Source: Candidatus Aquivivens invisus
GTDB lineage: Bacteria; Omnitrophota; Gorgyraeia; Aquiviventales; Aquiviventaceae
DNA length: 58,327 bases
Direction of reading: 5' to 3'
Assembly: GCA_001804415.1 (NCBI GenBank)
Contig: MHGA01000046.1
Span: 1 to 58,327, forward strand
Shown here piece by piece: positions 33,401 through 54,043 of the stretch; position 1 is the stretch's first letter; each line of letters opens with the position of its first letter. A model generated the notes under the pieces. It saw only the letters and a list, made by a program, of their open reading frames with translations, ran no database searches and was not told the origin of the DNA. A program made the translations under genes and the position numbers.

Positions 33401-34476
33401 TTAGAACTGGTTCGCCGGATTGTCAATGGATGGCCACGCGTCGGCAAGAGGGTTCAGGCCGTCGATCCAGGCTGAGGGAATGACGTAGGGAGCCAACGCC
33501 TCCGGCGCCATCCGGAACAGGCGCGCATCCATCACCAGCACCACGGAGGATGGCGGCGGCTGAACCCGGTCGAGATCTCCCCACGGTTTCCTCCGAGCAA
33601 GACGCCGGTGAAACAACTCGGCGTGGGTCAGCCCGCGGAGCTCTTCGGCGGTCCCGGCGTACAAGCGATCCTGATGTTCCAGGAGCCAGGGCTCGTATTG
33701 CCGGTACACCCCGACCGGCAGGCGCAAGAAGATGGTGGCGTGGCGATGCGGGGTTCCGCGCGGAAGGTTGAGGCACGCCTCGAGAACGTTCTCCGTAAGG
33801 CTGATGGCCCCATCGACGCAGCGGGTCAGCGCGACGCTCAGGGCATGGGTCGTCTTGATCACCATCCACTGGGTCCCATCGACGGCTCGGCCAGGCAGCG
33901 TCCACGGGAACGCCCCGCGAGGCCGCCCGATCGCCCATCCCGCCCCCTCATTGAGGTCTCCGACGAGGTGCTGGATCCAATCGATGAGTTTGTTGGCTCG
34001 GACGATGGTTCCGCTGCCTGGGCTGATGGAGCCACCGGTCGCCACCGTATAGCTGACCGTGGCATCGCCCAGGCTGAGCTCTCGGAGCTGGAATGCATCC
34101 GCCAGCTCGCCGATTCGCCTGAGCGGACGGGCGTGGCCGAACCGATGCCACGCCCCGCGGATCCCCACAAACACATGTTCGATCAGACGAATCTCAGGAC
34201 CCGGAATCGGCAGATCAAGGAGCCAATCCGCCAGTCGCACGACCTCCAGCTCCGTCACGTTGGCCGTCGTGTAGAGTGCGCCATGCAGATCCAGCATCCG
34301 GTCGTCACGATGCACCGTCAGGCGCGCTTTCGACGGGCACGCGGCGAAGAACCGCTCCTCGAACGACTCCTCTGCTGAGACACCAGGAACACGCAGCACG
34401 CAGCAAGCACCAAGCAGCAAGCACCAAGCAGCAAGCAGCAAGTGACAGGTGACAGGCGACAACTCGTCATTCGACA
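33401..34476 (-). CDS. hypothetical exported protein
   Basis: MSNDELSPVTCHLLLAAWCLLLGACCVLRVPGVSAEE signal peptide, encoded by a heptamer array; mature part unrecognised. Confidence 0.6.
34391..34460. repeat. ten consecutive in-register heptamers
   Basis: ACGCAGC ACGCAGC AAGCACC AAGCAGC AAGCACC AAGCAGC AAGCAGC AAGTGAC AGGTGAC AGGCGAC. Confidence 0.95.
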
Positions 34477-36224
34477 TTCGAAAAGATTCCTTCCATCGCC
34501 GTCCCATCAAGTGATTCCGGGGGATACTCGATGCCAACCAGGTGAAGAATGGTTGGCATCAGATCAATGATCCGATGCGGGTGCGACGATTGGCCCAGCC
34601 GAATGTTCGGCCCGGCCAGGAAGCAGGTCATCCGCATCGCCTCGCGAAGTGGGGCGCCATGATCCGTGCCGGTCTCGCCATCGGTGCGAAACGTCCAGCC
34701 GCGGGCGGCGGTAGCGACAAGGTCAGGGTCTCGGCTGTCGGCCAGCTGCGCCACCGGAGGCTTCCAGCTGAAAAACTTCGCGATGCCGACGACCGCGTCG
34801 GGATAGTCGGTGCCGGCCGTCACTCGCAACCACTCCTCCGCCGAATGAGCCTCCGCCATCCATTGCGCGACGGGTCGCGGGGAGGCCGCCTCACGGACCG
34901 TGGGATCTCGCAGATAGCCGAGCGGATCGTCCTCGGGGAAGGAGGGCTCATACCGATACTGCTCCATGCCGGCCTCGTCCGTCTGCAGATGGATGAGGGC
35001 GTCAGGCGCCGAGGCGCGATGCACCAGCACGCGCGCGGCATCGAGTTTCACCAGGACCAGATCCACCCCATCGAACCGGCCCAACGCGTCAACCAGGTTC
35101 ACCCGGCCCCGGTTGGGCCCAAGGTCGTAGGCCAGCAATTCCTCGAGGGTGTTGCGCCGCCAGGCTCCGGTGTGATACGCCGCCTGAGGCAGAAAGATGG
35201 ACGCCTGGCCCCACGCCTGATGGTCGACGAACACAAACCGATTCGGATCGAATCCGGGATGCACCCACTCCTGTCCCACGACCCTGACGTTGCAACCAAG
35301 CCGGCGATGGACGAACGTCTCCACGAGCCCCGCAGGCCGGCTCGGATGGGTCGTGCCCCCCACGTGTCCATGATCGGAGATGAGAAAGAGGTAGGTCGAG
35401 TGACTCCAGCCGACCTGGCGAATCCTGCGCACCATCTTGCCCAGCCACCGATCGAACGCGATCAGGGTGTCCCGCACGTCGCCAAATTGTCCTCGGGGGC
35501 TGTGGTGGCTGAGCTTGTCCACCATCGGAAACCACGCCAGGATGACCCGCGCCTCCGGATCGCCGAGCACTTCTTCAATCAGGTACCGCGCGTTGACCTG
35601 ATCCAGCTCATGCGGGATCCGGTGGATCGCCGTAAACGGCTGCTCGATCGTGTTGAGCGCCCGGTGCAGCCACAAGGGCGGGGGATTCAGCGGCGCGATG
35701 GGGAGGACGGTATGCCGATAGCGTGCGCCGAGGTACGTGTCGAGCATGGGAACACCGCGCCGCCGCAAGACCTGATGGGTGTCTTCCGGCGCGAACTTGT
35801 CGAGCAAGTCGACGATGCGGGGGCCCTGGCGCGTGCGCCGCGCCAACCACTCGGGAAGCCATTCGCCCGCCTGGCCGGCCGGGAGGCGCGTCGTGCGCTC
35901 GAATTGGTTCTGGGACTTGATGCCCGTGCGATCCGGAAAGCGGCCGGTCACCAGCGCCCCGTTGGCCGTCAGGGTGTTCGAGGGAAAGGTGGTGAAGGCC
36001 TGCGTGAATTCGAGCCCGCCCTCCAGGAAGACCTGCTGGATGGTGGGCAGGAGCCCCTCCTGCGCCATGGCGCGAACGACATCAGGCCGAAGGCCGTCGA
36101 CGTAGAACACGATGACCCGCGCGTTCGGAATCGGCCCGGCGGGGGCCACACGACCGACCTCCTCCGCGGAGGCGACGGGATGGAGTGCGGCAAGCAGGAC
36201 GCCGGCGAGAATTCTGGCACGCAT
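34467..36224 (-). CDS. alkaline phosphatase/nucleotide pyrophosphatase family protein, secreted
   Basis: VIVFYVDGLRPDVVRAM, FPSNTLTANGALVTGRFPDRTGI, ISDHGHVG; reads into the upstream heptamer-containing gene. Confidence 0.88.
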   Translation of the reverse strand: MRARILAGVLLAALHPVASAEEVGRVAPAGPIPNARVIVFYVDGLRPDVVRAMAQEGLLPTIQQVFLEGGLEFTQAFTTFPSNTLTANGALVTGRFPDRTGIKSQNQFERTTRLPAGQAGEWLPEWLARRTRQGPRIVDLLDKFAPEDTHQVLRRRGVPMLDTYLGARYRHTVLPIAPLNPPPLWLHRALNTIEQPFTAIHRIPHELDQVNARYLIEEVLGDPEARVILAWFPMVDKLSHHSPRGQFGDVRDTLIAFDRWLGKMVRRIRQVGWSHSTYLFLISDHGHVGGTTHPSRPAGLVETFVHRRLGCNVRVVGQEWVHPGFDPNRFVFVDHQAWGQASIFLPQAAYHTGAWRRNTLEELLAYDLGPNRGRVNLVDALGRFDGVDLVLVKLDAARVLVHRASAPDALIHLQTDEAGMEQYRYEPSFPEDDPLGYLRDPTVREAASPRPVAQWMAEAHSAEEWLRVTAGTDYPDAVVGIAKFFSWKPPVAQLADSRDPDLVATAARGWTFRTDGETGTDHGAPLREAMRMTCFLAGPNIRLGQSSHPHRIIDLMPTILHLVGIEYPPESLDGTAMEGIFSNVE

Positions 36225-36252
36225 GGGTCGTGGGGTATTATACAATGAAGCG

Positions 36253-38286
36253 ATGAGCCCGCTTGAAGCGCCTCTGCACCCGTTTGCCTACGATCCGTTT
36301 CAACAGCGGGCGGTGGAGGTGATCGACCGCGACACCTCGCTGTTCGTCGCCGCGCCGACCGGAGCCGGCAAGACCGTCATCGCCGACTACGTCATCGAGC
36401 GCGCCCTGCGTCACCATCAACGGGTCATCTATACCGCGCCGGTCAAGGCCCTGAGCAACCAGAAGTTCCGCGATTTCAGCGCGCGCCACGGCGAGGACGT
36501 CGGGATCATGACGGGTGATGTGACCCTGAACCCCAACGCTCCCCTGGTGATCATGACGACGGAAATCTATCGCAACGCCCTGCTGGAACACGCCACCCAC
36601 TTGCCCCGCTGCGCGTGGGTCATCTTCGACGAGGTCCACTACCTCGATGACCCGGAGCGCGGCACGGTGTGGGAAGAAGCGATCCTCTTTACGCCCTCCC
36701 ACATTAACCTCCTGGCGCTGAGTGCTACCATCCCCAATGTGGAGGAGCTGGCGACCTGGATCCGGCAGGTCCATCACCGGCCGGTCGAAGTGATCACCGA
36801 GGCGAAGCGGCCGGTTCCACTGCACGTCCTGTTTCAATGCCAGAATCGCCTCATCGAAAGCTACAACGCCCTCAAGCACGAGGGGTACCACAACCGGGAG
36901 GACTGGGGCCGCCTCCCGACGCCCCCACCCATCCGGTTCTCCAGAGGGCGGAGAGGCTTCCGCCATCGCCGGCAGGCGCCGCGGTCTCGTCGCTCGTGGG
37001 ACGCGCAGGAGTCGGTTCATCCGAATCGTCTCGATCATCTGATCCAACATCTCAAAGACACCGACCGGCTTCCCTGCATCTTCTTTACGTTCGGGCGCCG
37101 CCGCACCGAAGAGCTTGCCTGGGAGGCCTCGCGGCTGCCGCTGATCGCGCCGGAGGAGTCGACGTCCCTGCGCCGGATGTTCCGCGAGCTGTGCGAGCGC
37201 TACCAACTCACGCACGACCCGACGGCGCAGGCGATGAGCCAACTGATCGACCGAGGGGTCGCCTACCACCATGCGGGGATGCTGCCCACGGTCAAAGAGG
37301 TGGTGGAACGCTGTTTCGTCAGCCGGCTGATCAAGTTCATCGTCACGACGGAAACGTTCGCGCTCGGCATCAACATGCCGGCGCGCAGTGTGGTCATCGA
37401 CAGCCTGAAGAAACGGATCAACGGGCGGATGGATCTCATCCGCTCCCGCCAGTTCCTCCAGATGGCGGGCCGGGCCGGACGCCGCGGGATGGATGAGGCA
37501 GGATTCGCCTACCTGCGGGTGCAGCCGACGATGGTCACCTACCACGACGTCATGCGGGTGATCCGCAGTCAGCCGGAAGTGGTCCAGAGCCGATGGAACA
37601 CCGCCTACGCCACCCTGCTGAATCTCTACCGGCGGCACGGGCGCGGGCTGTTGTCGATCTTCCTTCAGACCTTCTACGCCTTCCAGACTTCCGGCCGACG
37701 GCGCGAGGAGGGCCAAGCGCTCATGGAACGCAAGCTGGATGTCTTGGCACATCTGGGGTACCTCGGTCCTGAGGGACTGACGCCTCGAGGGGAGTTCGCC
37801 TCCTGGTTGTATGGCTATGAATTGCTGTTGACCGAGCTGCATGAGCAACGCCATCTCGAACAGCTCGACCCGCCCTCCCTCGCCGTGTTGATGACGGCGG
37901 TGGTCTACGAGCCCCGCCCGGGTCTGCGGGCGCCGAAGCCCACCGCGATCAGCCGTCGGCTCGAAGGACTCTGCGAAGAGCCCCTGGGCCGTCTCCATCG
38001 GGTGGAACGGCAGTTTCAGATCCGCCCGCTCTCCAAATCGCCCGCGTTTTCACTCGCGCCGGCGGTGGAAGCGTGGTTTCACGGCTCGGCCTTCACGAAG
38101 CTGAACCGCCTGTGCGACGTGGACGAGGGGGAGATCGTGCGGTATTTCCGGATGGCGATTCAACTGTTGCGCCAACTCGCCCAAGCCCCGGCCGCCGCAG
38201 AGGGTGTGCGGCACAAGGCCGAGGTGGCGTGGTCGCGCCTCAATCGGGATGTCGTGGATGCGGAACAGCAGCTGCGCATGGGCTAG
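36253..38286 (+). CDS. Ski2/Mtr4-like DExH-box helicase
   Basis: APTGAGKTVIADY, DEVHYLDD, LSATIPN, TETFALGINMPARSVV, QMAGRAGRRGMD. Confidence 0.93.
   Translation: MSPLEAPLHPFAYDPFQQRAVEVIDRDTSLFVAAPTGAGKTVIADYVIERALRHHQRVIYTAPVKALSNQKFRDFSARHGEDVGIMTGDVTLNPNAPLVIMTTEIYRNALLEHATHLPRCAWVIFDEVHYLDDPERGTVWEEAILFTPSHINLLALSATIPNVEELATWIRQVHHRPVEVITEAKRPVPLHVLFQCQNRLIESYNALKHEGYHNREDWGRLPTPPPIRFSRGRRGFRHRRQAPRSRRSWDAQESVHPNRLDHLIQHLKDTDRLPCIFFTFGRRRTEELAWEASRLPLIAPEESTSLRRMFRELCERYQLTHDPTAQAMSQLIDRGVAYHHAGMLPTVKEVVERCFVSRLIKFIVTTETFALGINMPARSVVIDSLKKRINGRMDLIRSRQFLQMAGRAGRRGMDEAGFAYLRVQPTMVTYHDVMRVIRSQPEVVQSRWNTAYATLLNLYRRHGRGLLSIFLQTFYAFQTSGRRREEGQALMERKLDVLAHLGYLGPEGLTPRGEFASWLYGYELLLTELHEQRHLEQLDPPSLAVLMTAVVYEPRPGLRAPKPTAISRRLEGLCEEPLGRLHRVERQFQIRPLSKSPAFSLAPAVEAWFHGSAFTKLNRLCDVDEGEIVRYFRMAIQLLRQLAQAPAAAEGVRHKAEVAWSRLNRDVVDAEQQLRMG
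36947..36964. repeat. palindrome GGCGGA-GAGGCT-TCCGCC inside the helicase CDS
   Basis: same TCCGCC/GGCGGA arms as the 2180-2221 hairpins; encodes part of RGRRGFRHRR. Confidence 0.7.
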
Positions 38287-38301
38287 CCACAGGAAAAACG
38301 G

Positions 38302-38329
38302 GACAAGCGACAAGCGACAAGCGACAAGC
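38302..38329. repeat. (GACAAGC)x4 perfect heptamer array
   Basis: four identical copies, 16 nt after the helicase stop. Confidence 0.95.
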
Positions 38330-38360
38330 AGAAAAAGCAGACAGCAAAGACCACGGCTCC

Positions 38361-39341
38361 ATGTTCAACGCGCCAACGCGCCAACCTGAGAACCCGCCGA
38401 CCCGCGCACCCCGGCACCCAGGCACACTTTTACTTGTCACTTGTCACTTGTCACTTGTCGCTGTCATGGGGTGCGCCGCCCCGCAGTACGCGATCCGTCC
38501 CACGCCGGTGCCGGAGGAGTCGGCGTGGGCCGTGGAGTTGGAACGGACGATCAGCGCTCAGCAGGCCCAAGCGCTGGAACGGCAGGACGCGCGCCTGCTT
38601 GGATCCGGCGAACGGCTCTGGGGATTCGACGTCCATCGCGTCCTGATGCGCTTAAGCCGCGTGACCGAGCGCCCTGGGTTGCCGTACCACGTGTTCCTGC
38701 TGCAGGACCCTGACCCCAACGCCATTTCCTTGGCGGACGGGCGAGTGTACGTGACGAGCGGCATGCTGGATTACCTCTCCTCACGGGGCAGCCGCGAGGA
38801 GGAGCTCGCGGCCGTCCTCTCCCACGAGCTGGCGCATACGGTCGCGCAACATCTCGTCAAACGGTATCGCCAGCTGCAGCAGCAGCAACTGCTGCTGGCC
38901 GTGGTGGGGGCTGGCACCGCGATCGCCTCGCAACAGGCCGGCGCGTCACTCGGCTCGCTGGCGAACGACGCGGCATCGCTGATCGCCTCGGTCGCCAACA
39001 GCGCCTACAGCCAGGACCAAGAACTGGAGGCGGATCAGCTCGGCGTGCGGTACATGGCGCGGGCCGGCTACGATCCCCGCACGACGATTGCCCTCCTGCG
39101 GGATTTCGTGCGTTTCGCGCCCGGCGGGATCTTTCTCAGCACGCACCCCGGCTCGGAGCGCCGGGCCCAGGATCTGGAACGGTTTCTCGCCGAGGCCGCA
39201 CCGGTCACGTCGGCCGCGCCGGCTCCTGCCTCCGTCGAGCAGCAGCGCCAACGTCTCAAAGCCGCCCAGCAGTCCTATCCGGTCGGCTCGCTCAGCTGGA
39301 AGAATCTCCAGCGACAGTTGGACGCGCTGGGGTCGCCGTAA
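38361..39341 (+). CDS. M48-family metalloprotease lipoprotein
   Basis: lipobox AVMGC; VLSHELAHTVAQHLVKRY; QDQELEADQLGVRYMARAGYDP. Confidence 0.9.
   Translation: MFNAPTRQPENPPTRAPRHPGTLLLVTCHLSLVAVMGCAAPQYAIRPTPVPEESAWAVELERTISAQQAQALERQDARLLGSGERLWGFDVHRVLMRLSRVTERPGLPYHVFLLQDPDPNAISLADGRVYVTSGMLDYLSSRGSREEELAAVLSHELAHTVAQHLVKRYRQLQQQQLLLAVVGAGTAIASQQAGASLGSLANDAASLIASVANSAYSQDQELEADQLGVRYMARAGYDPRTTIALLRDFVRFAPGGIFLSTHPGSERRAQDLERFLAEAAPVTSAAPAPASVEQQRQRLKAAQQSYPVGSLSWKNLQRQLDALGSP
38362..38461. repeat. octamer-then-heptamer array forming the entire signal-peptide coding region
   Basis: TGTTCAAC GCGCCAAC GCGCCAAC CTGAGAAC CCGCCGAC CCGCGCAC CCCGGCAC CCAGGCAC ACTTTTAC then TTGTCAC TTGTCAC TTGTCAC TTGTCGC. 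Confidence 0.9.
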
Positions 39342-40395
39342 CGAAGGCGCGGAGGGAGGACGCCGTCGGGTCGAGCAGCCCTCCTTCGGTGATGAAGCGG
39401 GTCACGAACGGCGCGGGGGTGAGATCAAAGGCGGGGTTCTTGGCTGGAGAGGCCTCCGGGGTGATGCGCACTCGTTCCAGCCGTCCCTGAGGCGTGAGGC
39501 CCGTCACCCAGGTCACCTCATCGGCCGAGCGCTCCTCGATGGGAATCTTCGATCCCTCCGGAATGGACAGATCAAACGTGGAGCGAGGGGCGGCGACGTA
39601 GAACGGCACCCCGTGGTGTTTGGCCAGCAGGGCGAGCGTGTAGGTGCCGATCTTGTTGACCACATCCCCGTTCGCGGCAATCCGGTCCGCTCCCACGATC
39701 ACGCCATCCACCTGGCCGCGCTGGAACAGGGAGCCGGCCGCCGTATCCGCGATGACGGTGTGGTCAATGCCTTCCTGGGCGAGCTCCCACGCGGTCAATT
39801 TCGCGCCTTGCGAGCGGGGGCGAGTCTCATTCACGTAGACGAACACGGCCCGTCCCGCTCGATGCGCGTGATAGATGGGGGCCAACGCGCTGCCCCAGTC
39901 GACGAACGCCAGCCACCCGGCGTTGCAGTGCGTCATGAGGCGCGCCCCATCGCGCAAGAGCGCCGAGCCCACGCGCCCGATCGTCTCCCCCGCTTTCGCA
40001 TTCTCATCCGCGAGCTGCTCGGCCACCCGCACCGCGTCGCGACGAGCCGTGGCAGGAGTACCCGCCTGTTGAATCGCTCGGAGCACGTGGTCCACGGCGT
40101 AGAACAGATCATGGGCGGTCGGACGGGTTGCACGAATCAGTGAGGCAGCTTCCTCGACGTAGGACAGCAAGGCGTCCTGGGGAGCTTCCAACGCCGCTTG
40201 AGCCATCGCATACCCCGCAGCGCCACCGATGGCGCCGGCCCCGCGCACCAGCATCGTCTGAATCGCCCGGGCGGTGTCGCGATGGGTTTGGCAGTCCGCG
40301 ATCGCAAAGGCGTGCGGCAATCGATGCTGGTCGATCAGCTTGACCGTCGAGCCCTCAAGCCACACCGTCCTGTATTCCTTCCCGTTGACGCGCAT
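39292..40395 (-). CDS. mtnA: S-methyl-5-thioribose-1-phosphate isomerase
   Basis: VRGAGAIGGAAGYAMA, LMTHCNAGWLAF, GVIVGADRIAANGDVVNKIGTYTLALLA. Confidence 0.93.
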   Translation of the reverse strand: MRVNGKEYRTVWLEGSTVKLIDQHRLPHAFAIADCQTHRDTARAIQTMLVRGAGAIGGAAGYAMAQAALEAPQDALLSYVEEAASLIRATRPTAHDLFYAVDHVLRAIQQAGTPATARRDAVRVAEQLADENAKAGETIGRVGSALLRDGARLMTHCNAGWLAFVDWGSALAPIYHAHRAGRAVFVYVNETRPRSQGAKLTAWELAQEGIDHTVIADTAAGSLFQRGQVDGVIVGADRIAANGDVVNKIGTYTLALLAKHHGVPFYVAAPRSTFDLSIPEGSKIPIEERSADEVTWVTGLTPQGRLERVRITPEASPAKNPAFDLTPAPFVTRFITEGGLLDPTASSLRAFVTATPARPTVAGDSSS

Positions 40396-40406
40396 GATCC
40401 CGTTAG

Positions 40407-40478
40407 CAGACAGCACACAGCACACAGCAGACAGCAGACAGAATTCGTCTCTGTGTGCTGTGTGCTAACTGCTGTGTG
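40407..40478. repeat. two complementary heptamer arrays (inverted)
   Basis: CAGACAG CACACAG CACACAG CAGACAG CAGACAG (40407-40441) versus CTGTGTG CTGTGTG CTAACTG CTGTGTG (40451-40478). Confidence 0.92.
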
Positions 40479-40479
40479 C

Positions 40480-42054
40480 TCATTCAAGGGGAATCCCGTG
40501 CCGCGTGGTATTCTCGCAAATCGTCTTGGGCACCACAAGCTGCAACAGATAATCCGGCCCGCCCGCCTTGGTCCCAAGACCGGAGAGCTTCGCGCCGCCG
40601 AAGGGCTGGCGGCCGACGAGGGAGCCGGTGATGGGACGATTCAGATACAGGTTCCCGACCTGGAAGGAATCGATCGCCTCCTTGAGATGCGACGGCGACC
40701 TGGAGTAGACGCCGCCGGTCAACCCGTACGCCGTGTCGTTGGCTAACGCGAGACCCTCCGAGAAGCTGCGAACCCGAAACAGGCAGACCACCGGGCCGAA
40801 CAATTCTTCCTGAGCCAAGGGGCTGCGCGGATCGACCTCGGCACACAGCGCGGGGCCGCAAAAAAATCCCTCCGCGGGCAGGCGCTCAGGAGGAGAGCGA
40901 TACAGGCACGTGGAGGAGGCGGCGGCCTCGGCAACGGCCGTCGTCACGCGCGTTTTGGCATCGGCGTCGATGAGGGGGCCGAGATCGCAGCGTGGCTCAA
41001 TCGGGTCGCACACCCGCAGGCCCGCCACGGCCGGGATGAGCCGTTCCACGAGCCGATCGTAGAGGGCCGCGTGCACGATGAGGCGCGAGGCGGCCGAGCA
41101 TTTTTGCCCCTGATAGCCGAACGCCGAGATGAGGACGCCGTGGATGGCCTCGTCCAGATCGGCGTCTTCATCGACGACGATCGCGTTCTTGCCTCCCATC
41201 TCCACGACCGCATGCTTGACGAAGCGCTGCGCGGCGGATGGATTGCCCACCGTCCGGAGAATCGACAGGCCCACCGCTTTCGAGCCGGTGAACATCACCA
41301 GCGCGACCCGAGGGTCCTCCACGAGGGCGCGGCCGGTTTCCTCGCCGAGGCCCGGTAGATACTGAAGGACATCCTCCGGCACGCCGGCTTCGTGCAGGAG
41401 GCGCACGAAGAAAGACGCGAGGATCGGCGACTGCTCGGCCGGTTTCACGATCACGACGTTGCCGGCCGCCAGGGCGGATGAGGCCATGCCGGCGAGGATC
41501 CCGACGGGAAAATTCCACGGGGCGATCACCGCGCACACCCCTCGCGGCACATAGCCGTAGCGATTGGACTCGCCGGGCTGCTGGATGACGGCTTTGCCTT
41601 GGGCCAGCTCCAAGGCCCCGGCACGGTAGTAGTCGAGGAAGTCGATCGCCTCCACCACATCCGCATCGGCCTCCCGCCAGGGCTTGCCAACCTCCAGGAC
41701 TGCCAGCGCCGCAAACCACGCGCGCTGCTGCCGCAGCCGCGCCGCGGCGGATTGCAGGAGCTCCGCTCGGGTCTCCACCGGCGTGCGGGCCCAGCGAGCC
41801 TGCGCCCGCAGGGCGCAGGCGATGGCCCGATCCACCTCCTCAGAACGAGCCAGCGCCGCCTGCCCCACGATGTGCGACGGATGGGCGGGGTTCACCGACG
41901 GCAGCCACCGGCCGGTGACCACCGGCTGCCCGCCGATCACGCATGGCGCCTTCCATCCGCACTCGCGGCGGACCTGCTCGAGGGTGCTTGCAAACCGGGT
42001 GCGCTGCGAGGAGTCTGAAAAATCTGCGAGGGGCTCGTTCTGAAATGCGGTCAT
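40480..42054 (-). CDS. L-glutamate gamma-semialdehyde (P5C) dehydrogenase
   Basis: APWNFPVGILAGMASSALAAGN, FTGSKAVGLSILR, VEMGGKNAIVVD, FGYQGQKCSAASRLIV, EELFGPV. Confidence 0.93.
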   Translation of the reverse strand: MTAFQNEPLADFSDSSQRTRFASTLEQVRRECGWKAPCVIGGQPVVTGRWLPSVNPAHPSHIVGQAALARSEEVDRAIACALRAQARWARTPVETRAELLQSAAARLRQQRAWFAALAVLEVGKPWREADADVVEAIDFLDYYRAGALELAQGKAVIQQPGESNRYGYVPRGVCAVIAPWNFPVGILAGMASSALAAGNVVIVKPAEQSPILASFFVRLLHEAGVPEDVLQYLPGLGEETGRALVEDPRVALVMFTGSKAVGLSILRTVGNPSAAQRFVKHAVVEMGGKNAIVVDEDADLDEAIHGVLISAFGYQGQKCSAASRLIVHAALYDRLVERLIPAVAGLRVCDPIEPRCDLGPLIDADAKTRVTTAVAEAAASSTCLYRSPPERLPAEGFFCGPALCAEVDPRSPLAQEELFGPVVCLFRVRSFSEGLALANDTAYGLTGGVYSRSPSHLKEAIDSFQVGNLYLNRPITGSLVGRQPFGGAKLSGLGTKAGGPDYLLQLVVPKTICENTTRHGIPLE

Positions 42055-43370
42055 TCCAAGTCTTGACGCAGGAACGATTCGTTGGCCGTGTTCTCCAAGA
42101 TCCGCCGCACCAGGTACGCCATGCCGGGGATCAGCTCTCCCAGCGGGGCGTAGACACGGACGGGGAAACCGAGTTGGCGGATCGCCCCTTGGATCGCATC
42201 GCCCATGCCGTAGAGCAGCTGATACTCCACTGCGTCCTTCGATGAGCCCAGCGACTCCGCCACCGCCATCGCATGGGCGATCGACCGGATGTTATGAGAG
42301 CCGAGCTCGGGACGCACGAGCTCACGGTGCGAGAGCATCTGCTCGGTCAACCGCTCAAAGGCTTCATCGGTCTGCCGCTTGTTGTGATAGACCGGCAGGA
42401 GCCAGCCCCGTTGTTTCGCATAGGCCACTTCGGAATCCCAATACGCCCCTTTGACCAAGCGCACCGACAGGCGCCGTCCGTGATCCCGCAGCCAGGACAG
42501 CAGCTCCCCGAACACCTGCGGCGTATCCCGCAGGTACGCCTGCAGGACGATGCCTAACTGCAGCCGTTCCCCAAGGCCCGGCTCCACGAGCAGCCGCCTG
42601 GCGAGCTCGAGCGTCAGATCCCGAAGCCGGTACTGCTCCATGTCCAGGGTGATGGCCACGTCATGGTCCACCGCGTCCCTCGCGATGACGCGCAGACGTC
42701 TCAGCGCATCCGCCACACTCTCCTCGAAACTCACCGGATCGAAGTGGGCCGACAGGCTGGAGGGCTTGATGGACAGATGCACCAGGGGCCGATCCCCGAC
42801 GGCGTCCGGCGCATGGAGCCGCCGGCAGGCGGTGCTCAATTCGCTGATGAGGGTCGTATACCTCCGCACCGAGGTGTTGGCTTCGTCGTCGCTCGTGACC
42901 TGTTCTCCCAACACGTCGAAGCTGACCAGCACGCCTCGATCCGCCATCCGATGAATCAGGCCGAGGGCATCGTGGAGGTGGGAGCCGGCGATGAATTGCC
43001 GTGCCACCTGCTCGACGATATGGCGGACCACCGCCGAGACGGCTGGGGCCGTCAAGAGTCCTGGACGGGACAACGACACGCCGAGCCGGAAGGCCGCCGG
43101 CAATCGCAGATGATGGAGCGGGAAGTAGTCGTGGAGGTGGCGCGCCACCGCCTGCGGGGTGGTGAGGCTGGGCAGGCAGTCGATGAACCGAAGGACGCCG
43201 GCCTTCAGCTGCGCATCCGAGAGCGACCACGCGAGGACGCGCTTGGTCCACCGATTGAGCGTCGTGAGGTGGTGGTGCTCCCGACGCGCCCTCTCGAGCA
43301 GCTCCCGAGCGATCTCCTGCGTCCGGTCTTCCACTGCAAGCCCTGGCGGGGCCAGGGGTGCGTAACTCAT
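42051..43370 (-). CDS. proline dehydrogenase (monofunctional)
   Basis: VHLSIKPSSLSAHFDP, DVAITLDMEQYRLRDLTLEL, RLVKGAYWDSEVAYAKQRG, LGSHNIRSIAHAMA, YQLLYGMGDAI. Confidence 0.92.
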   Translation of the reverse strand: MSYAPLAPPGLAVEDRTQEIARELLERARREHHHLTTLNRWTKRVLAWSLSDAQLKAGVLRFIDCLPSLTTPQAVARHLHDYFPLHHLRLPAAFRLGVSLSRPGLLTAPAVSAVVRHIVEQVARQFIAGSHLHDALGLIHRMADRGVLVSFDVLGEQVTSDDEANTSVRRYTTLISELSTACRRLHAPDAVGDRPLVHLSIKPSSLSAHFDPVSFEESVADALRRLRVIARDAVDHDVAITLDMEQYRLRDLTLELARRLLVEPGLGERLQLGIVLQAYLRDTPQVFGELLSWLRDHGRRLSVRLVKGAYWDSEVAYAKQRGWLLPVYHNKRQTDEAFERLTEQMLSHRELVRPELGSHNIRSIAHAMAVAESLGSSKDAVEYQLLYGMGDAIQGAIRQLGFPVRVYAPLGELIPGMAYLVRRILENTANESFLRQDLE

Positions 43371-43373
43371 CCC

Positions 43374-43472
43374 CCCACCTGCCTACCCCGCCATTTGGCG
43401 GGGCGAAAATTCGGGTGTGGAGAACGCAGCGATATTTTCGCGGCTCGCCTTCGGCGAGCCCAGGGAGGTGGG
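43374..43472. repeat. nested cruciform-like palindromic element between divergent genes
   Basis: outer CCCACCT/AGGTGGG; CCCCGCC-ATTT-GGCGGGG; CGAAAAT/ATTTTCG; GGCTCGCC-TTC-GGCGAGCC. Confidence 0.8.
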
Positions 43473-43519
43473 AGGATCATACCTATGATGATATACTACG
43501 TGGAGTGCCGGAGGGAAGG

Positions 43520-44737: not shown

Positions 44738-44760
44738 CCGCGCGTATGCGCCGCAGTCCC

Positions 44761-44788
44761 TTGCCCCTTGCCCCTTGCCCCTTGCCCC
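44761..44788. repeat. (TTGCCCC)x4 perfect heptamer array
   Basis: four identical units, 12 nt before the downstream ATG. Confidence 0.95.
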
Positions 44789-44799
44789 CGTCATTCCTT

Positions 44800-47827: not shown

Positions 47828-48343
47828 TTATTTCGTGTACCGAGGTTTCTCCTCAGCAGGCGCAGGGGCCGACGGGGAGATGCCAGCCATCGAATCGCTC
47901 GGCGGGTAGACGCCCGCCGCGCCGATCTCTGGCTCGCCCTCAAGCGCGAGCGGCTCAGGCGTGGAGGAGGAGGCCGTGGTGGTCAGGCCGGCTAAGCAGT
48001 TCTCGTAGGAGTCGGAGACCGGAAAGCCGTTGAAGCCGGGCACCCAGAAGGTCGTCAAATCAACGCCGCCCGACAGGACCCGTAACCCCAGACAGCCGGC
48101 TCCCTTGCCGACGCCGACGAGTGTGCCCACCACCGGCGGGCCATTGCGGGTTTCGTTCACGACATTGACGAGCAGATCGACGAAGGACGTCACCACATTG
48201 ATCACGCCTCGGCCGATCATCCCGCCCATCTTGCGCCCGTACTGCGAAGATTCCGCCGCCTCGTGGACGGTCGTCCGCATCGCCCACGCATTGGGAATTG
48301 CCATCACGAACGCCACGAATGTCACGGCCACCAGTTTACGCAT
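47828..48343 (-). CDS. exosortase system-associated protein, TIGR04073-like
   Basis: signal peptide; KMGGMIGRGVINVVTSFVDLLVNV..GTLVGVGKGAGCLGLRVLSGGVDLTTFWVPGFNGFP. Confidence 0.7.
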   Translation of the reverse strand: MRKLVAVTFVAFVMAIPNAWAMRTTVHEAAESSQYGRKMGGMIGRGVINVVTSFVDLLVNVVNETRNGPPVVGTLVGVGKGAGCLGLRVLSGGVDLTTFWVPGFNGFPVSDSYENCLAGLTTTASSSTPEPLALEGEPEIGAAGVYPPSDSMAGISPSAPAPAEEKPRYTK

Positions 48344-48392
48344 CGATTCACCCTCCCTGTTGCGTTGAGTGTAGCGCGAACGCTTGCGTCTG

Positions 48393-48647
48393 TCAACGCC
48401 GTCGAGCGGCCCGCGCAAGCCGCCAGGCGATGCCCCCGATCATCAGCGCCGGTACCCCCAGCAACGCCGCGATGCTGAAGGCATAGCCACGCACCACGCC
48501 GCTTTGGGCGGCGGTACCGCTGGGATCAAAGAGCGCCTCCTTGCACAGCGGGCACGCCCACGCCACCGCAGTGACTAGTGACTGGTGACTAGTGACTAGT
48601 GCATAGAGAAAAAACTGCGCCCAGGTACGCGAGGTGATCTTCATCAT
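48393..48647 (-). CDS. small exported/membrane protein with CPLC motif at the end of the oxidase operon
   Basis: signal peptide partly encoded by a heptamer array, WACPLCKEALF, C-terminal TM. Confidence 0.6.
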   Translation of the reverse strand: MMKITSRTWAQFFLYALVTSHQSLVTAVAWACPLCKEALFDPSGTAAQSGVVRGYAFSIAALLGVPALMIGGIAWRLARAARRR

Positions 48648-48681
48648 CACTGGTCACTGATCACTAGTCACTGGTCACTGC
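48571..48681. repeat. two complementary heptamer arrays flanking the start of the CPLC gene
   Basis: GTGACTA GTGACTG GTGACTA GTGACTA GTGCATA (48571-48605); TCACTGG TCACTGA TCACTAG TCACTGG TCACTGC (48647-48681). Confidence 0.93.
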
Positions 48682-48683
48682 TC

Positions 48684-49097
48684 TTAGAGGTGGTACAGCA
48701 TCAGGTACACGATCACGCCGGTGACCGAGACGTAGAGCCACAACGGCAGCGCCACGCGCGCGAGACGCTCATGCGCCTTCCAATCCCGCCGGAAGGCCAG
48801 GCGCAGCGTCTGGACAACCAGCGGCACGATGACGACGGCTAAGATCGTGTGCGAGATGAGGATCGCGACATAGAGCGGACGCACCCATCCCTCCCCACTA
48901 AATCGCGTCACGCCGACCTGCCGATGGTAATTGACGTAGGAGACGAGAAAGGCGGTCGAGACCAGGCACGCCGCGAGCATGCAGAGGATATGGGCAGCGG
49001 TCCGCTTGGCACGGATACAAAGATACCCGCCGACGAGCAGGACCGCGCTGGTGGCGTTGAGGCACGCGTTGATCGCCGGAACGACCGACAGCGGCAT
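48684..49097 (-). CDS. DUF420 (CtaM-like) membrane protein
   Basis: PAINACLNATSAVLLVGGYLCIRA..HILCMLAACLVSTAFLVSYVNYH. Confidence 0.85.
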   Translation of the reverse strand: MPLSVVPAINACLNATSAVLLVGGYLCIRAKRTAAHILCMLAACLVSTAFLVSYVNYHRQVGVTRFSGEGWVRPLYVAILISHTILAVVIVPLVVQTLRLAFRRDWKAHERLARVALPLWLYVSVTGVIVYLMLYHL

Positions 49098-49101
49098 GGG
49101 G

Positions 49102-49707
49102 TTACTCCCGCACGAGACGCTGCACGTCACGCCGGATGCGCGTCATCGCCTCCGCCTCACCCGCATCGTACGATCCGCGAATCACCCCCTGCCGATCCAC
49201 CAGGACGAACCGACGGCTGTGCGTGATCGGCTCCTCCACGGTCCCTTCGTAGCTGAGGGCCAGCTGAAAGCCGGCCTGGGAGAGGCGGGTGATCGTCTGC
49301 AGGTCGCCGGTGAGAAACCGCCACTGCGCCGGGCGAGCCGCGTGGGAGGCGGCGTATCGCGCGAGGATCTCCGGGGTGTCATGCGCGGGATCCACCGTGA
49401 ATGACACCAGCACCAGCGAGGGCTCCCCCTGAAACGCCTGCGCCAACCGGCTCATCTGCGCGGTCATCACAGGGCATTGCCCCGCGCAGCGCGTGAAGAT
49501 GAAATCCGCAATCCAGACGACCCCCTTGAACGTCTCCTGAGAAACCGACCCTCCGGCCTGATCCGTCAGGGTAAATGAGGGGACGCGCCCGTACCGAGGG
49601 AGTGCGACGGCTTTCGCGGCGTCCGCGACATACCACAGGAGCCCGACGCCAGACACGACCGCCACCGCCCACACGCTCCACAGCAGCCGGCGCGCGCTAC
49701 GTTCCAT
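49102..49707 (-). CDS. SCO1/SenC family copper chaperone
   Basis: WIADFIFTRCAGQCPVMTAQM, VSFTVDPAHDTPEIL; internal ATG at 49707. Confidence 0.93.
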   Translation of the reverse strand: MERSARRLLWSVWAVAVVSGVGLLWYVADAAKAVALPRYGRVPSFTLTDQAGGSVSQETFKGVVWIADFIFTRCAGQCPVMTAQMSRLAQAFQGEPSLVLVSFTVDPAHDTPEILARYAASHAARPAQWRFLTGDLQTITRLSQAGFQLALSYEGTVEEPITHSRRFVLVDRQGVIRGSYDAGEAEAMTRIRRDVQRLVRE

Positions 49708-49709
49708 GA

Positions 49710-51410
49710 TTAGAGGAAGGTTTTGTCGACGACCATGATGCCTAAGACCAGCGGCAGGTAGCCGACCGACGCCAGGAACAACCGTTGCGCCCCCCTGTCG
49801 GAACCCTTGACCGCGTGTGTCAAGGGCGAGACCGCCTGCCAGGCGGTCCACAGCAACCACGACCCCAGACTTAACGCCGCCAGGACATACAACAAGCCGG
49901 CCGCCCCGAGGACGGCGGGAAAGAGACTGGTCACCAGCAGCGCCAACCCGTAGACCACCATCTGACGGGCCGTGCTCTGACCGGTCGGATCCACAACGGA
50001 CAGCATCCGAAATCCGGCTCGTCGGTAATCGTCCCGATGCACCCAGGCGATCGCGAGGAAATGCGGCAGCTGCCAGAGAAAGAGGATCGCGCACAACACC
50101 CACGCCTCGAGACTGAGCGACCCTGACGCGGCCGCCCATCCAATGATCGGCGGCAGGGCGCCGGGGACGGCGCCGATGAGGGTGCACAGCGGGCTGAGCC
50201 GTTTCATGGGGGTGTAGACGTTGACGTAGATCACCAGCGTCGTCAAGGCGCACCACGTCGCGAGCGCATTGACGAACAGCCAGAGACACGCAAGCCCTGT
50301 GATCGCCATCGTCACGCCGAAGGTGCATGCCTGCCACGGCTGCAAGCGGCCCGTGGGCAGCGGGCGGATTTTGGTGCGCTCCATCAGGGCATCCGCGTCG
50401 TGTTCAGCCCACTGATTCAAGGCGTTGGCTCCCGAACCCACCAGCCACGCGCCGATCAGCGTCGGGATGAGTGTCGCGGGGTCCGTGTAGATGGTCGACC
50501 CCATCAGGAATCCGACCGCCGTGGTGAGCAGCGCCATCATCGTCACGCGCGGCTTGGTGAGTTCCCAAAACGCCCCGACCCTCGCACGCCATGGAGTTCG
50601 AAGTTCGAAGTTCGAAGTTCGCAACACCCCTCGCCACGCTGTGAAGACGAGGACGGAGGCGGAGGCTAGCAAGAGTGCCCCAAGACTTTGATGGGCGGTT
50701 GTCATCAACACCGGCTCGCGCTGCCTCCACGCAAACCATCCGAGGGCAAGCTGCACGACCATGCCGAGGATCAACCCCGTGACGAGGCGATGCGCGCTGC
50801 GCAGACGGCGCGCCGACCACCAGAGCCACGCGACGAGACTGACGATCGCCGTCGCGCCGACCAGATGCAATGCGAGGGCCTGCCCGGTATGCCGCAGAAC
50901 CGCCCCGACGATCAGTTGAACCACCATGAGCCCGAACAGGCCAAGACTGCCAAGACGCACCGCACGCGGCCCCAGCACATCCCCTTGAGCACGTAACCAT
51001 CGGGGATCGAGAACCACCGCCACGCAGACCAGCATGCAGAATACCAGCGGCCCCAGGCACGCGTGCGCCACGGAAATCGACGGCGGCAACATCCACAGCA
51101 CCGTCAGCCCCCCGAGGACGGCCTGGGCGAACACCGCGGCCAATGCGCCCTCGCCCAACCGCCGAACCCACTGACGAGGCTCGCGCCGCCGCAACCAGAT
51201 CGCGAGGACAGCGATCAGCAACGCCACGATCCCGGCGATCACGCGATGGGTGTGCTCATAGCGGATGCCGCCCACCATCGGCGGGAACAACGTCCCATAG
51301 GACAGCGGCCAGTCCGGCACCGCCAAGCCGGAGTCGGTTGACGTGACGAGGCCGCCGGCGATGAGCAGGAGGAAGGTGGCCGCTGCGGTGAGCTGGGCGA
51401 ATCGATGCAT
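49710..51410 (-). CDS. heme A synthase (CtaA/COX15)-protoheme IX farnesyltransferase (CtaB/COX10) fusion
   Basis: N-half GGLVTSTDSGLAVPDWPLSYG, HRVIAG; C-half KPRVTMMALLTTAVGFLMG, NALNQWAEHDADALMERTKIRPLPTG. Confidence 0.95.
   Translation of the reverse strand: MHRFAQLTAAATFLLLIAGGLVTSTDSGLAVPDWPLSYGTLFPPMVGGIRYEHTHRVIAGIVALLIAVLAIWLRRREPRQWVRRLGEGALAAVFAQAVLGGLTVLWMLPPSISVAHACLGPLVFCMLVCVAVVLDPRWLRAQGDVLGPRAVRLGSLGLFGLMVVQLIVGAVLRHTGQALALHLVGATAIVSLVAWLWWSARRLRSAHRLVTGLILGMVVQLALGWFAWRQREPVLMTTAHQSLGALLLASASVLVFTAWRGVLRTSNFELRTPWRARVGAFWELTKPRVTMMALLTTAVGFLMGSTIYTDPATLIPTLIGAWLVGSGANALNQWAEHDADALMERTKIRPLPTGRLQPWQACTFGVTMAITGLACLWLFVNALATWCALTTLVIYVNVYTPMKRLSPLCTLIGAVPGALPPIIGWAAASGSLSLEAWVLCAILFLWQLPHFLAIAWVHRDDYRRAGFRMLSVVDPTGQSTARQMVVYGLALLVTSLFPAVLGAAGLLYVLAALSLGSWLLWTAWQAVSPLTHAVKGSDRGAQRLFLASVGYLPLVLGIMVVDKTFL
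50595..50622. repeat. (AGTTCGA)x3 + AGTTCGC heptamer array in the CtaA-CtaB linker
   Basis: in-register 7-nt units encoding part of LRTSNFELRTP. Confidence 0.92.
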
Positions 51411-51413
51411 TTT

Positions 51414-51566
51414 CTTGGTGCTTGTTGCGTTACTGCGTTAGTGCGTTGGTGCGTTTGCGAGTTAGCGCGTTCAACGCATTAACGCACAAACTCACAAACT
51501 CGTTAACAGACTTGTCGCTTGTCGCTTGTCACTTGTCGCTTGTCACTTGTCACTTGGTGCTTGGTT
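51414..51566. repeat. long octamer plus heptamer array between coxI and ctaAB, running into the coxI 3' end
   Basis: TGCGTTAC TGCGTTAG TGCGTTGG TGCGTTTG ... ACGCATTA ACGCACAA ACTCACAA; CTTGTCG CTTGTCG CTTGTCA CTTGTCG CTTGTCA CTTGTCA CTTGGTG CTTGGTT (51511-51566). Confidence 0.93.
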
Positions 51567-53258
51567 CTGCGGCAGCCAGTCTTGTGATGAACCGGGCACG
51601 CTGTATTCGTACGGCCCGTGGTAGACATGCGGGGTGCGTTCGAAATTGCCGTGCGGAGGAGGCGAGGGGGCGGCAGTCCATTCCAGCGTCGTCGCTTCCC
51701 ACGGATTGGCCGGCGCCTGCTTGCCCTTGAATAGGCTCCAGAAGAAGTTGCCGATGAAGAGGAGCTGCGAGGCGAATAAGAGGAAGGCGCTGAGGCTCAT
51801 CAGGCGGTTGAGGGGACCCAGGTGCGCGAGGTGCGCGTACTGCGACCAGTCGTAGATTCGGCGCGGCATGCCGTTGATACCTAAGAGAAACATCGGAAAC
51901 ATCACGCCGTTGAAGAAGATCAGGGTGAGCAGCAGGTGGAGCTTGCCCACGCGCTCGGACATCATCCGGCCGAACATCTTCGGGAACCAGTAGGTGAGGC
52001 CGGCGAACGCGCCGAAGAGGCTTCCACCAAAGAGGACGTAGTGGAGGTGCCCGACGATGAAGTACGTGTCGTGCACATACATGTCCACCGGCATCGAGGC
52101 GAGGAAGATCCCGGTCAAGCCGCCGATCAGGAACATCGCCACGAAAGCGCAGGCATGCGCCATCGGCACGGTCATGCGGATCGAGCCGCGCCAGAGCGTC
52201 GCCAGCCAGTTGAAGATTTTGACACCGGTCGGCACCGCGATGACCATCGTCGCGACCATGAAGCTCGTGCCCAGCGCGGGATTCATCCCGCTGACGAACA
52301 TGTGGTGCGCCCACACGATAAAGCCGAGCACCGCGATGGCGGCGATCGCGTAGACCATCGAATGGTAGCCGAAGAGCGGCTTGCGCGCGAAGGTTGGGAG
52401 GATATCCGAGATCATCCCCATCGCCGGCAGGATCATAATGTAGACGGCCGGATGCGAATAGAACCAAAACAGATGCTGCCACAGGATCGGCTGCCCCCCG
52501 CTGTGCGCCAAGGCGACGCCGTCCACGATGAGTCCGGAGGGCATGAAAAAGCTGGTGCCCAGCGTCTTATCAAGCAGCAGCATGACGAGGCTCGAGGCCA
52601 AGGCGGGGGTGGCGCAGAGCACCATAATCGCGGTGATGAACAGCGCCCAGATCGACATCGGCATGCGGAAGAAGGTCATCCCGGGCGCGCGGTGATTGAT
52701 GACCGTCGTGATGTAGTTGATCGATCCCATGATGGAGGAGGTGCCAACGAAGAGCAGGCTGACGACCCAGCACGTCTGCCCAGGACCCAGCGTCACGCTT
52801 AAGGGGGCATACGACGTCCATCCCGCGGCTGCCGCCCCGCCCTCCAGGAAGAACCCAAGGAACATGATGACAATCGCGGGCCACATCAGCCAGTAGGAGA
52901 CCATGTTCAGGCGGGGAAAGGCCATATCCGGCGCGCCGATTTTGAGCGGGATGAGGTAGTTGCCGAACGCCCCGACGAGGATGGGGATGATCCCGAAGAA
53001 GATCATGACGGAGCCGTGCATCGTGAAGAGCATGTTGTAGTATTCGGGCACCATCACCCCGCCCGGCATGCCGTTCGGCGCCAGCTGCCCCATCCACGAG
53101 AGCGGCTGGGACGGCCAGCCCAGCTGCCAGCGCATCAGCATCGCCAGGGCTCCGCCGATGAGCAGCATCGCCAGGCTCGTGAAGAGGAATTGGATGCCGA
53201 TGATTTTGTGATCCGTCGAGAAGACGTAGCGTCGAAGCAAAGAGGGCGATTGAGTCAT
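51543..53258 (-). CDS. ctaD: cytochrome c oxidase subunit I
   Basis: STDHKIIGIQFLFTSL, WQHLFWFYSHPAVYIMILP, FVSGMNPALGTSF, DTYFIVGHLHYVLFGG. Confidence 0.97.
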   Translation of the reverse strand: MTQSPSLLRRYVFSTDHKIIGIQFLFTSLAMLLIGGALAMLMRWQLGWPSQPLSWMGQLAPNGMPGGVMVPEYYNMLFTMHGSVMIFFGIIPILVGAFGNYLIPLKIGAPDMAFPRLNMVSYWLMWPAIVIMFLGFFLEGGAAAAGWTSYAPLSVTLGPGQTCWVVSLLFVGTSSIMGSINYITTVINHRAPGMTFFRMPMSIWALFITAIMVLCATPALASSLVMLLLDKTLGTSFFMPSGLIVDGVALAHSGGQPILWQHLFWFYSHPAVYIMILPAMGMISDILPTFARKPLFGYHSMVYAIAAIAVLGFIVWAHHMFVSGMNPALGTSFMVATMVIAVPTGVKIFNWLATLWRGSIRMTVPMAHACAFVAMFLIGGLTGIFLASMPVDMYVHDTYFIVGHLHYVLFGGSLFGAFAGLTYWFPKMFGRMMSERVGKLHLLLTLIFFNGVMFPMFLLGINGMPRRIYDWSQYAHLAHLGPLNRLMSLSAFLLFASQLLFIGNFFWSLFKGKQAPANPWEATTLEWTAAPSPPPHGNFERTPHVYHGPYEYSVPGSSQDWLPQNQAPSDK

Positions 53259-54043
53259 AAGGATTGCTCCACGCGCGTCTGCTCCAGCCACGACTGAAAG
53301 GCCTCAGCCGATTCGATGGTGACGTAGCCGCGCATCCGGTAATGCCCGAGGCCGCACAGCTCCGCGCACACCATCTCCACCTGCCCCGGCTTGATCGGCT
53401 GCACCCAGAGGCGCCCGGTCAATCCCGGCACCGCATCCAGCTTCATCCGGAACTGCGGCACGAAGAAGCTGTGGATGACGTCTTTGGACTTCAGGTGCAC
53501 CAGCGCCACCTGGTCGACCGGCAGATGGAGCTGGTTGATCAGCTCCAGATCATCCTCGGTGTGCAATCGCCCGTCAGGCCCCGCGTAGCGCACGTTCCAC
53601 GCAAACTGCTCCGCGGTGATCTCCACCTCCAGCTGGTGCGCCGGCGGAGTGCCTCGAATGTGGGCCCACACCCGCTGGCTGGCAAACGCCAGGGACGTCA
53701 CGATGATCGCGGGGATCACCGTCCAGATCACCTCAGCGCTGCGACAGCCGTGGACGTAGGCGGCGCGCGGGTTGGCCGGCTGCCGGTAGCGGATGAGAAA
53801 CCACAGCAAGGCGCCCTCGACGAGCAGGAAGATGATCCCGGTGATCCACAGGATCACCAGAAACATCTGATCGACCTGGCTGCCGACCGAGGAAAGGTTG
53901 TCCGGAAACCACACCCTCGCGGAGCCGGCCCACGCTGGATCAGCACCAAGCACCAAGCAGTACGCAGTAAGCAAAAGTGCTTTGAAATTTCTTACGGCCG
54001 ACGAGCCGACGAGCCGACGAGCCCAACACATCAATTCATCCAC
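53255..54043 (-). CDS. ctaC: cytochrome c oxidase subunit II
   Basis: two TM segments; CuA motif CAELCGLGHYRMRG; HSFFVPQFRMKLDAVPG. Confidence 0.96.
   Translation of the reverse strand: MDELMCWARRLVGSSAVRNFKALLLTAYCLVLGADPAWAGSARVWFPDNLSSVGSQVDQMFLVILWITGIIFLLVEGALLWFLIRYRQPANPRAAYVHGCRSAEVIWTVIPAIIVTSLAFASQRVWAHIRGTPPAHQLEVEITAEQFAWNVRYAGPDGRLHTEDDLELINQLHLPVDQVALVHLKSKDVIHSFFVPQFRMKLDAVPGLTGRLWVQPIKPGQVEMVCAELCGLGHYRMRGYVTIESAEAFQSWLEQTRVEQSL
53943..54027. repeat. heptamer and octamer arrays in the ctaC signal-peptide coding region
   Basis: GCACCAA GCACCAA GCAGTAC GCAGTAA GCAAAAG (53943-53977); GGCCGACG AGCCGACG AGCCGACG AGCCCAAC (53996-54027). Confidence 0.92.

What the first reader, a model, noticed from the sequence alone, without database searches (positions are those of the whole stretch)
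34391..54027. Recurrent degenerate 7-nt/8-nt tandem arrays at gene boundaries, with a different unit at each locus
Reading the junctions shows strict 7-nt (sometimes 8-nt) register arrays at about 12 places: 2.2, 23.4, 31.0, 34.4, 38.3, 38.4, 40.4, 44.76, 48.6, 50.6, 51.4-51.6 and 53.9-54.0 kb. Units differ between loci (GACAAGC, TTGCCCC, AGTTCGA, GTGACTA, CACACAG, AAGCAGC, CTTGTCG) but the period is conserved, and many share a CTTG/CAAG core. Heptanucleotide STRR repeats are known from heterocystous cyanobacteria. This set of many unrelated units at the junctions of ordinary genes does not match any element I can name, and suggests a period-specific amplification or slippage process.
Basis: partly seen in the sequence, partly recalled or inferred. 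Interest (0 to 1): 0.88.

Follow-up and report, generated by a model that had tools for sequence, protein, structure and literature searches.

The report
Inserted hairpins built from 7-base repeats
The 7-base repeat arrays between this bacterium's genes are mostly the two arms of short hairpin elements, about 100 bases long, that were inserted between neighbouring genes and now sit at well over a hundred places in the genome, each lineage having its own repeat words but nearly always the same 7-base spacing.

Summary
Exact lag-7 runs: 10 in the window against 0.05 expected, and about 150 in 1.08 Mb of the same genome (an Omnitrophota MAG). Lag 8 is weakly raised; other short lags are at background. 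The reading "unrelated units made by local slippage" is only partly right. About half of the intergenic arrays have an inverted partner within 150 nt (49% versus 2.6% for other loci's flanks), so they are arms of hairpins: about four purine-rich heptads, a unique 6-50 nt spacer, about four pyrimidine-rich heptads. Units fall into about a dozen families. Different loci share odd variant units and even a composite block of 106 nt. The two arms of one hairpin are no more alike than arms of different hairpins of the same family. In a related genome (about 80% protein identity) 10 of 49 shared junctions lack the element (spacer about 4 nt versus 97) and 3 carry one that ours lacks. So these look like dispersed inserted hairpins, REPIN-like in anatomy, but without target duplications, RAYT or reverse transcriptase. 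Heptad arrays and inverted heptad pairs are known (cyanobacterial STRR, Xanthomonas, Geobacter). New here: the insertion evidence, the lineage-private families and the Omnitrophota range. The mover, and the reason for 7, remain unknown.

The parts
34386..34461 (+). 7-nt array, AAGCAGC/AAGCACC units running into GTGACAG units; purine-rich, no inverted partner found
34462..34483 (+). short degenerate 7-nt array CATTCGA
38296..38334 (+). 5' arm of hairpin element, (GACAAGC)4, starts just after the stop of the DSHCT helicase gene
38366..38427 (+). two 8-nt arrays (CAACGCGC; GCACCCAG) inside the spacer of that element
38428..38462 (+). 3' arm of the same hairpin, (ACTTGTC)4, ends 3 nt before the called start of the M48 peptidase gene; whole spacer folds at -59 kcal/mol
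40402..40446 (-). pyrimidine-rich arm (gene sense) of the AGCACAC-family hairpin between the IF-2B-like and aldehyde dehydrogenase genes
40451..40484 (-). purine-rich arm of the same hairpin, with the variant unit GCAGTTA shared by 7 loci of the genome; hairpin -50.6 kcal/mol
44756..44792 (+). 7-nt array (CCCTTGC)4, pyrimidine-rich, inside the likely N-terminal coding leader of the DDAH-like gene; period kept but unit replaced in most related genera
48570..48608 (-). arm of the AGTGACY-family hairpin next to the DUF420 gene
48644..48683 (-). second arm of the same hairpin; about -67 kcal/mol
50593..50623 (-). 7-nt array AGTTCGA read in frame as the linker between the CtaA and UbiA (CtaB) domains of one fused ORF
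51422..51507 (-). 8-nt hairpin (TGCGTTNG arms, almost no loop) of the composite element
51511..51565 (-). 7-nt array (CTTGTCR)n adjoining the 8-nt hairpin; composite recurs at contig C11:15145-15250 (91% over 106 nt)
53942..53969 (-). 7-nt array AGCACCA/AAGCAGT inside a 129-nt block absent from the orthologous junction of relative G001
53997..54028 (-). 8-nt array GCCGACGA in the same 129-nt block
23405..23433 (+). degenerate 8-nt array GCACCCAG-like at a gene junction
31003..31040 (+). weak 7-nt array AGTGACC at a gene junction

Best explanation
The arrays are mainly the arms of short dispersed hairpin elements, about 75-130 nt long: about four purine-rich 7-nt units, a unique 6-50 nt spacer, then about four pyrimidine-rich units of the same family in inverted orientation. 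Shown: they sit between adjacent genes, often starting within about 5 nt of a stop codon and ending within about 11 nt of a start; they come in families private to each genus; copies at different loci share variant units; and they are present or absent as whole blocks at orthologous junctions. Inferred: they spread inside the genome by a copying or insertion process that needs the hairpin and leaves no visible target duplication, like a non-autonomous REPIN-type element. Inferred: gene junctions are where they survive, because insertions elsewhere break genes; weak use of Shine-Dalgarno sequences lets them sit right before start codons. Inferred: unit sequences within a lineage then turn over by in-array slippage and exchange between copies while the 7-nt register is kept. 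The enzyme that moves them, and the reason for 7, are not known.
For: Locus-specific inverted partner: 49% of 183 intergenic arrays (score >=14) versus 2.6% with other loci's flanks; direct partners 3%. Fixed polarity: 5' arm purine-rich in 89 of 97 own cases, 43 of 51 in relatives, 63 of 91 in other phyla. Two arms of one hairpin no more alike than arms of different hairpins in fine families (AGCACAC within 0.72, between 0.78; GACAAG 0.67 and 0.68). Variant unit GCAGTTA, three substitutions from the family unit, in 7 loci; unit order shared between loci, z 3.7-3.8 in the two largest clusters; one hairpin with identical spacer at two loci with different flanks; composite copied at 91% over 106 nt. 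Family AGCACAC: 31 hits in own genome, 0 in 116 other Omnitrophota. Relative G001: of 49 shared junctions 10 own-only (median spacer 97.5 versus 4 nt), 3 G001-only (6 versus 97), 5 both with different units; clean gaps of 77-129 nt in most of the aligned cases. Arrays in 27% of co-directional and 21% of convergent but 8% of divergent spacers. G-U versus A-C mismatches in sense stems 55:60, so no sign of selection on RNA pairing.
Against: No mobilising gene found: no Y1/RAYT transposase, no reverse transcriptase in a 93% complete genome; other transposases were not searched. No target-site duplication in the aligned insertions. Spacers are unique except for one pair. About half of the arrays have no detectable inverted partner. 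At one junction an array is kept across most genera with changed units, which simple insertion does not explain. Insertion rather than loss is inferred from ORF overlaps in the empty sites, not polarised with a third genome. Gene calls come from a simple caller written here.
Confidence: 0.55

Rival explanations
1. Local period-specific replication slippage (the first reader's view, and the polymerase-contact idea quoted for heptameric SSRs): each array grew in place from a random seed, and inverted pairs are by-products of template switching at the array.
For: Strict lag-7 with lag-14 and lag-21 echoes; unit turnover with conserved period at an orthologous junction; published hypothesis (PMC4692102).
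Against: Shared variants and composites between loci, whole-block presence/absence, arms of one hairpin not more alike than arms of other hairpins of the family, arm lengths peaking at 4-5 units with almost none above 7 rather than decaying.
Confidence: 0.17
2. Functional intercistronic RNA hairpins: the arrays form strong stems between genes in operons and act as partial terminators, mRNA stabilisers or translational couplers, as proposed for cyanobacterial STRR hairpins.
For: Position between co-directional genes right after stops; folding of -50 to -67 kcal/mol for three window elements; depletion between divergent genes; precedent text in PMC2670836; orthologous junctions sometimes hold other, unrelated hairpins.
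Against: No wobble signature in stems; most elements absent from the same junction in relatives; about half of the arrays lack a partner; few spacers look like terminators.
Confidence: 0.13
3. Arrays as spaced binding sites for a protein with a 7-nt footprint (a global DNA regulator as proposed in Geobacter, or cold-shock protein / ribosomal S1 on RNA).
For: About 4 units per arm, paired on opposite strands, in Geobacter, Xanthomonas and here; PMC4679880 cites CspB binding heptamer repeats, one protein per heptamer; the genome has 4 CSD proteins; pyrimidine-rich strand faces starts and SD-like motifs are at background there.
Against: Units differ completely between families and genera, so sequence-specific recognition is unlikely; no functional grouping of target genes seen.
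Confidence: 0.12
4. Assembly or binning artefact.
For: The genome is a 46-contig MAG.
Against: Arrays are short (20-75 nt), the architecture recurs in independent assemblies, and flanking genes stay intact.
Confidence: 0.01

Closest known systems
Cyanobacterial STRR (short tandemly repeated repetitive sequences), including the hupS-hupL and hoxW intergenic hairpins (PMC2670836)
   Same: 7-nt units, intergenic, several units per genome, able to form hairpins between genes
   Different: Here in Omnitrophota, genome-wide in inverted pairs with fixed polarity, with evidence of whole-block insertion and lineage-private families
GGGAATC / GGGGA(C/T)T heptad repeats of Xanthomonas and Nostoc (PMC4692102)
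   Same: 7 nt, mostly four units, many inverted pairs, near gene 3' ends, rare between divergent genes
   Different: One G-quadruplex-type unit there; about a dozen unit families here, mostly without G-tracts
Paired octa/heptanucleotide sites and four-heptad elements of Geobacter metallireducens (PMC2700814)
   Same: Three to five tandem 7- or 8-nt units, paired on opposite strands at variable distance, multicopy families
   Different: Interpreted there as global regulator sites or RNA elements; here presence/absence between genera at orthologous junctions is shown
REPINs (REP doublets forming hairpins; PMC3116915)
   Same: Two conserved inverted arms with a less conserved spacer, dispersed in extragenic space, within-genome families
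   Different: Arms are heptad arrays rather than REP palindromes; no RAYT/Y1 transposase found in the genome
TAACTGA repeats of Beggiatoaceae (PMC4679880)
   Same: Intergenic heptad arrays just before start codons
   Different: Single unit, almost never inverted there

Membership tests
Cyanobacterial STRR | tandem heptanucleotide units | tested here: met
   lag-7 spectrum
Cyanobacterial STRR | intergenic location with several different units per genome | tested here: met
   182 of 263 arrays intergenic; about 12 families
Cyanobacterial STRR | occurrence in filamentous cyanobacteria | tested here: not met
   genome is Omnitrophota: syntenic 62-87% identical proteins with JACQRA010000021.1
REPIN / REP-RAYT | two inverted conserved arms with variable spacer in extragenic space | tested here: met
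REPIN / REP-RAYT | cognate RAYT (Y1) transposase in the genome | tested here: not met
   PF01797 absent in the 93% complete genome; control genomes ring
REPIN / REP-RAYT | 16-18 nt REP palindrome as conserved arm | tested here: not met
   arms are 7-nt arrays
MITE | terminal inverted repeats | tested here: met
MITE | target-site duplication | tested here: not met
   none visible in the aligned filled/empty sites
MITE | cognate DDE transposase | not tested
   only Y1 and RVT_1 were searched
Xanthomonas/Nostoc G4 heptad repeats | about four 7-nt units, inverted pairs, rare between divergent ORFs | tested here: met
   compare
Xanthomonas/Nostoc G4 heptad repeats | GGG/GGGG tract in each unit | tested here: not met
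   main families GACAAGY, AGCACAC, AGTGACY, AGCAATC lack G-tracts
Slippage-type SSR | copy-number change by whole units at a fixed locus among close strains | not testable with these tools
   no same-genus genome or reads available

The most novel reading that the evidence does not exclude
Bacteria carry a widespread class of mobile or copied hairpins whose arms obey a 7-nt (rarely 8-nt) ruler with about four units per arm and a purine-first polarity, in which each lineage keeps generating its own unit families; a so far unidentified machine that reads spacing and hairpin shape rather than sequence makes and inserts them, and the scattered reports of heptameric repeats (STRR, GGGAATC, Geobacter paired sites) are all products of it.
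Probability: 0.25. Interest if true: 0.85.

Novelty: new variant of a known kind. Interest (0 to 1): 0.6.

Why it matters
Over-representation of heptameric repeats in bacterial intergenic DNA has been noted for years and explained only by a guess about polymerase contacts (quoted in PMC4692102). Here presence/absence at orthologous junctions, shared variants between loci and locus-specific inverted pairing turn it into a concrete, testable claim: the repeats are arms of inserted hairpins. It also shows a route by which overlapping genes gain spacers, N-terminal leaders and interdomain linkers.

Tried and rejected
RNA-level selection as the cause of arm pairing: G-U and A-C mismatches are equal. 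In-situ fold-back copying of one arm into the other: arms of one hairpin are not more alike than arms of other hairpins of the family. RAYT or reverse transcriptase as mover: neither found. Target-site duplications: none seen. Terminators as the core: only a few spacers hold a clear terminator. Stop-codon content as the cause of polarity: stops on the purine strand are not depleted and only slightly above shuffled units. Rfam: nothing at the arrays. Plasmid collection: no match.

Full report
What was checked. In the window, exact lag-k runs of at least 11 matches occur 10 times at lag 7, twice at lag 8 and never at other lags from 1 to 13; a 3rd-order Markov control gives 0.05 at lag 7. TRF lists the same arrays, and a tolerant scan gives exact coordinates and gene context. 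The window is one contig of a 1.42 Mb, 93% complete genome. In 1.08 Mb of it, lag 7 has 165 runs (about 13 of them due to N stretches) against 15 in a 5th-order Markov control with the same N artefact. With a tolerant detector 263 lag-7 arrays are found, 182 mostly intergenic, while about 89% of the sequence is coding.

Organism. A pattern scan of named genomes hit several Omnitrophota MAGs. One of them, JACQRA010000021.1, is syntenic with an own contig at 62-87% protein identity. The genome is therefore an Omnitrophota member.

Anatomy. Printing whole spacers shows a repeated plan: stop codon, a purine-rich heptad array, a short unique stretch, the reverse-complement array, start codon. Tested against other loci's flanks, 49% of 183 intergenic arrays have an inverted partner within 150 nt at score 14 or more, versus 2.6% in permutations; direct partners are 3%. 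In 57 paired loci the aligned stem is about 27 nt and the spacer about 20 nt. Polarity is fixed: the 5' arm is purine-rich in 89 of 97 own cases, in 43 of 51 in relatives and in 63 of 91 in loci from other phyla; the last set is biased, having been chosen by a GACAAGY array. Arms peak at 4-5 units. A minor class has 8-nt units; 16 of 22 such non-coding arrays are also in inverted pairs, without the purine-first rule.

Families and dispersal. 145 elements fall into about a dozen families (GACAAGY 33, AGCACAC 17, AAGCACC 13, AGTGACY 11, AGCAATC 10, others fewer; 25 unassigned). The variant unit GCAGTTA, three substitutions from the family unit, occurs in seven AGCACAC hairpins at unrelated loci, and one hairpin with the same spacer occurs at two loci with different flanks. 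Shuffling the unit order inside arms lowers similarity between loci (z 3.7 and 3.8 in the two largest clusters, not significant in small ones). The composite at window 51426-51563 (8-nt hairpin plus 7-nt array) recurs at contig C11 with 91% identity over 106 nt. Within fine families the two arms of one hairpin are no more alike than arms of different hairpins, except in the AGTGACY and AGACC groups. AGCACAC arrays give 31 hits in the own genome and none in 116 other Omnitrophota. GACAAGY gives 93 in the own genome and 1-7 in eight of 26 family members.

Insertion. In relative G001, with orthologues at about 80% identity, 49 junctions could be compared: 10 have an element only in our genome (median spacer 97.5 versus 4 nt), 3 only in G001 (6 versus 97), 5 in both with different units, 31 in neither. 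Alignments show clean single gaps, for example 103 nt between ...GTCGCTCCCGCCCG and ATGATTGGTCACGCACG at L052:6494, where the G001 genes overlap, and 125 nt the other way at L055:16101; no target duplication is visible. At window 53915-54055 a 129-nt block with two arrays is missing in G001. Other relatives show the same plan with other units.

One persistent site. At the junction after the TIGR00300 gene (window 44738-44799), most genera of the family carry a pyrimidine-rich 7-nt (rarely 8-nt) array with a different unit nearly everywhere, even between sister genomes. In almost all genomes read, the array is in frame between an upstream ATG and the conserved M-C-R/P-P-T motif, so it is probably translated as an N-terminal leader. 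Another array (50593-50623) is the in-frame linker of a fused CtaA-CtaB ORF. Arrays inside called genes crowd near ORF ends: 26 of 68 within 90 nt of the 3' end and 15 within 90 nt of the 5' end, versus about 6 expected each. Junctions, and what can be tolerated there, therefore decide where arrays are seen.

Function. Sense-strand stems show 55 G-U and 60 A-C mismatches, giving no sign that RNA pairing is selected. SD-like motifs are found before 31-33% of co-directional genes, 15% of genes directly behind an array and 16% of random sites, so start codons can evidently do without them here. Arrays occur in 27% of co-directional, 21% of convergent and 8% of divergent spacers. Together this fits tolerated insertions better than a dedicated RNA function, though effects on transcripts are likely where stems reach -50 to -67 kcal/mol.

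Known relatives. Cyanobacterial STRRs are 7-bp repeats that form hairpins between genes (PMC2670836). Xanthomonas GGGAATC repeats are mostly four units, with 70-75 inverted pairs per genome, and are rare between divergent ORFs (PMC4692102). Geobacter metallireducens has multicopy pairs of three to five 7- or 8-nt units on opposite strands (PMC2700814). REPINs are hairpin doublets with a variable spacer thought to be moved by RAYTs (PMC3116915). The present elements match the first three in anatomy and the last in likely behaviour, but no RAYT, reverse transcriptase or target duplication was found. Whether one process underlies all of these is open; that is the novel case offered here.

Limits. 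Gene calls come from a simple hexamer-based caller written for this work. Insertion versus loss is not polarised with outgroups. No same-genus genome and no reads were available. The mover and the reason for the 7-nt period are unknown.

Noticed in passing
window 18445-18496 (-): nhaA-I riboswitch match (43 bits, above gathering) upstream of an ArsB/antiporter-like gene at 16858-18273.
   Followed up: no
window 50593-50623: Fused CtaA-CtaB (COX15 + UbiA) ORF whose interdomain linker is a 7-nt array; other family members also have both domains in a row.
   Followed up: partly
window 44746-44799 and loci L260-L280: Fast-evolving, low-complexity N-terminal leader in a DDAH-like gene, made of heptad arrays of different unit in most genera, in frame in nearly all.
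   Followed up: partly
window 18586-18676; 43335-43519: Other dispersed long inverted repeats (MITE-like families, e.g. GCTTCGTTTTGCTTCG... and CATCCCCCCACCTGC...) repeated at many intergenic places of the genome.
   Followed up: no
L206 (relative G003) several junctions; L209: REP-like palindromes GGGGACGTTTCTATTTTCGC... and AAGTGTCTGACACTT at junctions orthologous to array sites.
   Followed up: no
window 8305-8600: 21-nt tandem repeats inside a coding region (gene 8156-9238, minus strand).
   Followed up: no
own genome (1.08 Mb sampled): Weak Shine-Dalgarno usage: about 32% of ATG starts versus 16% background.
   Followed up: partly
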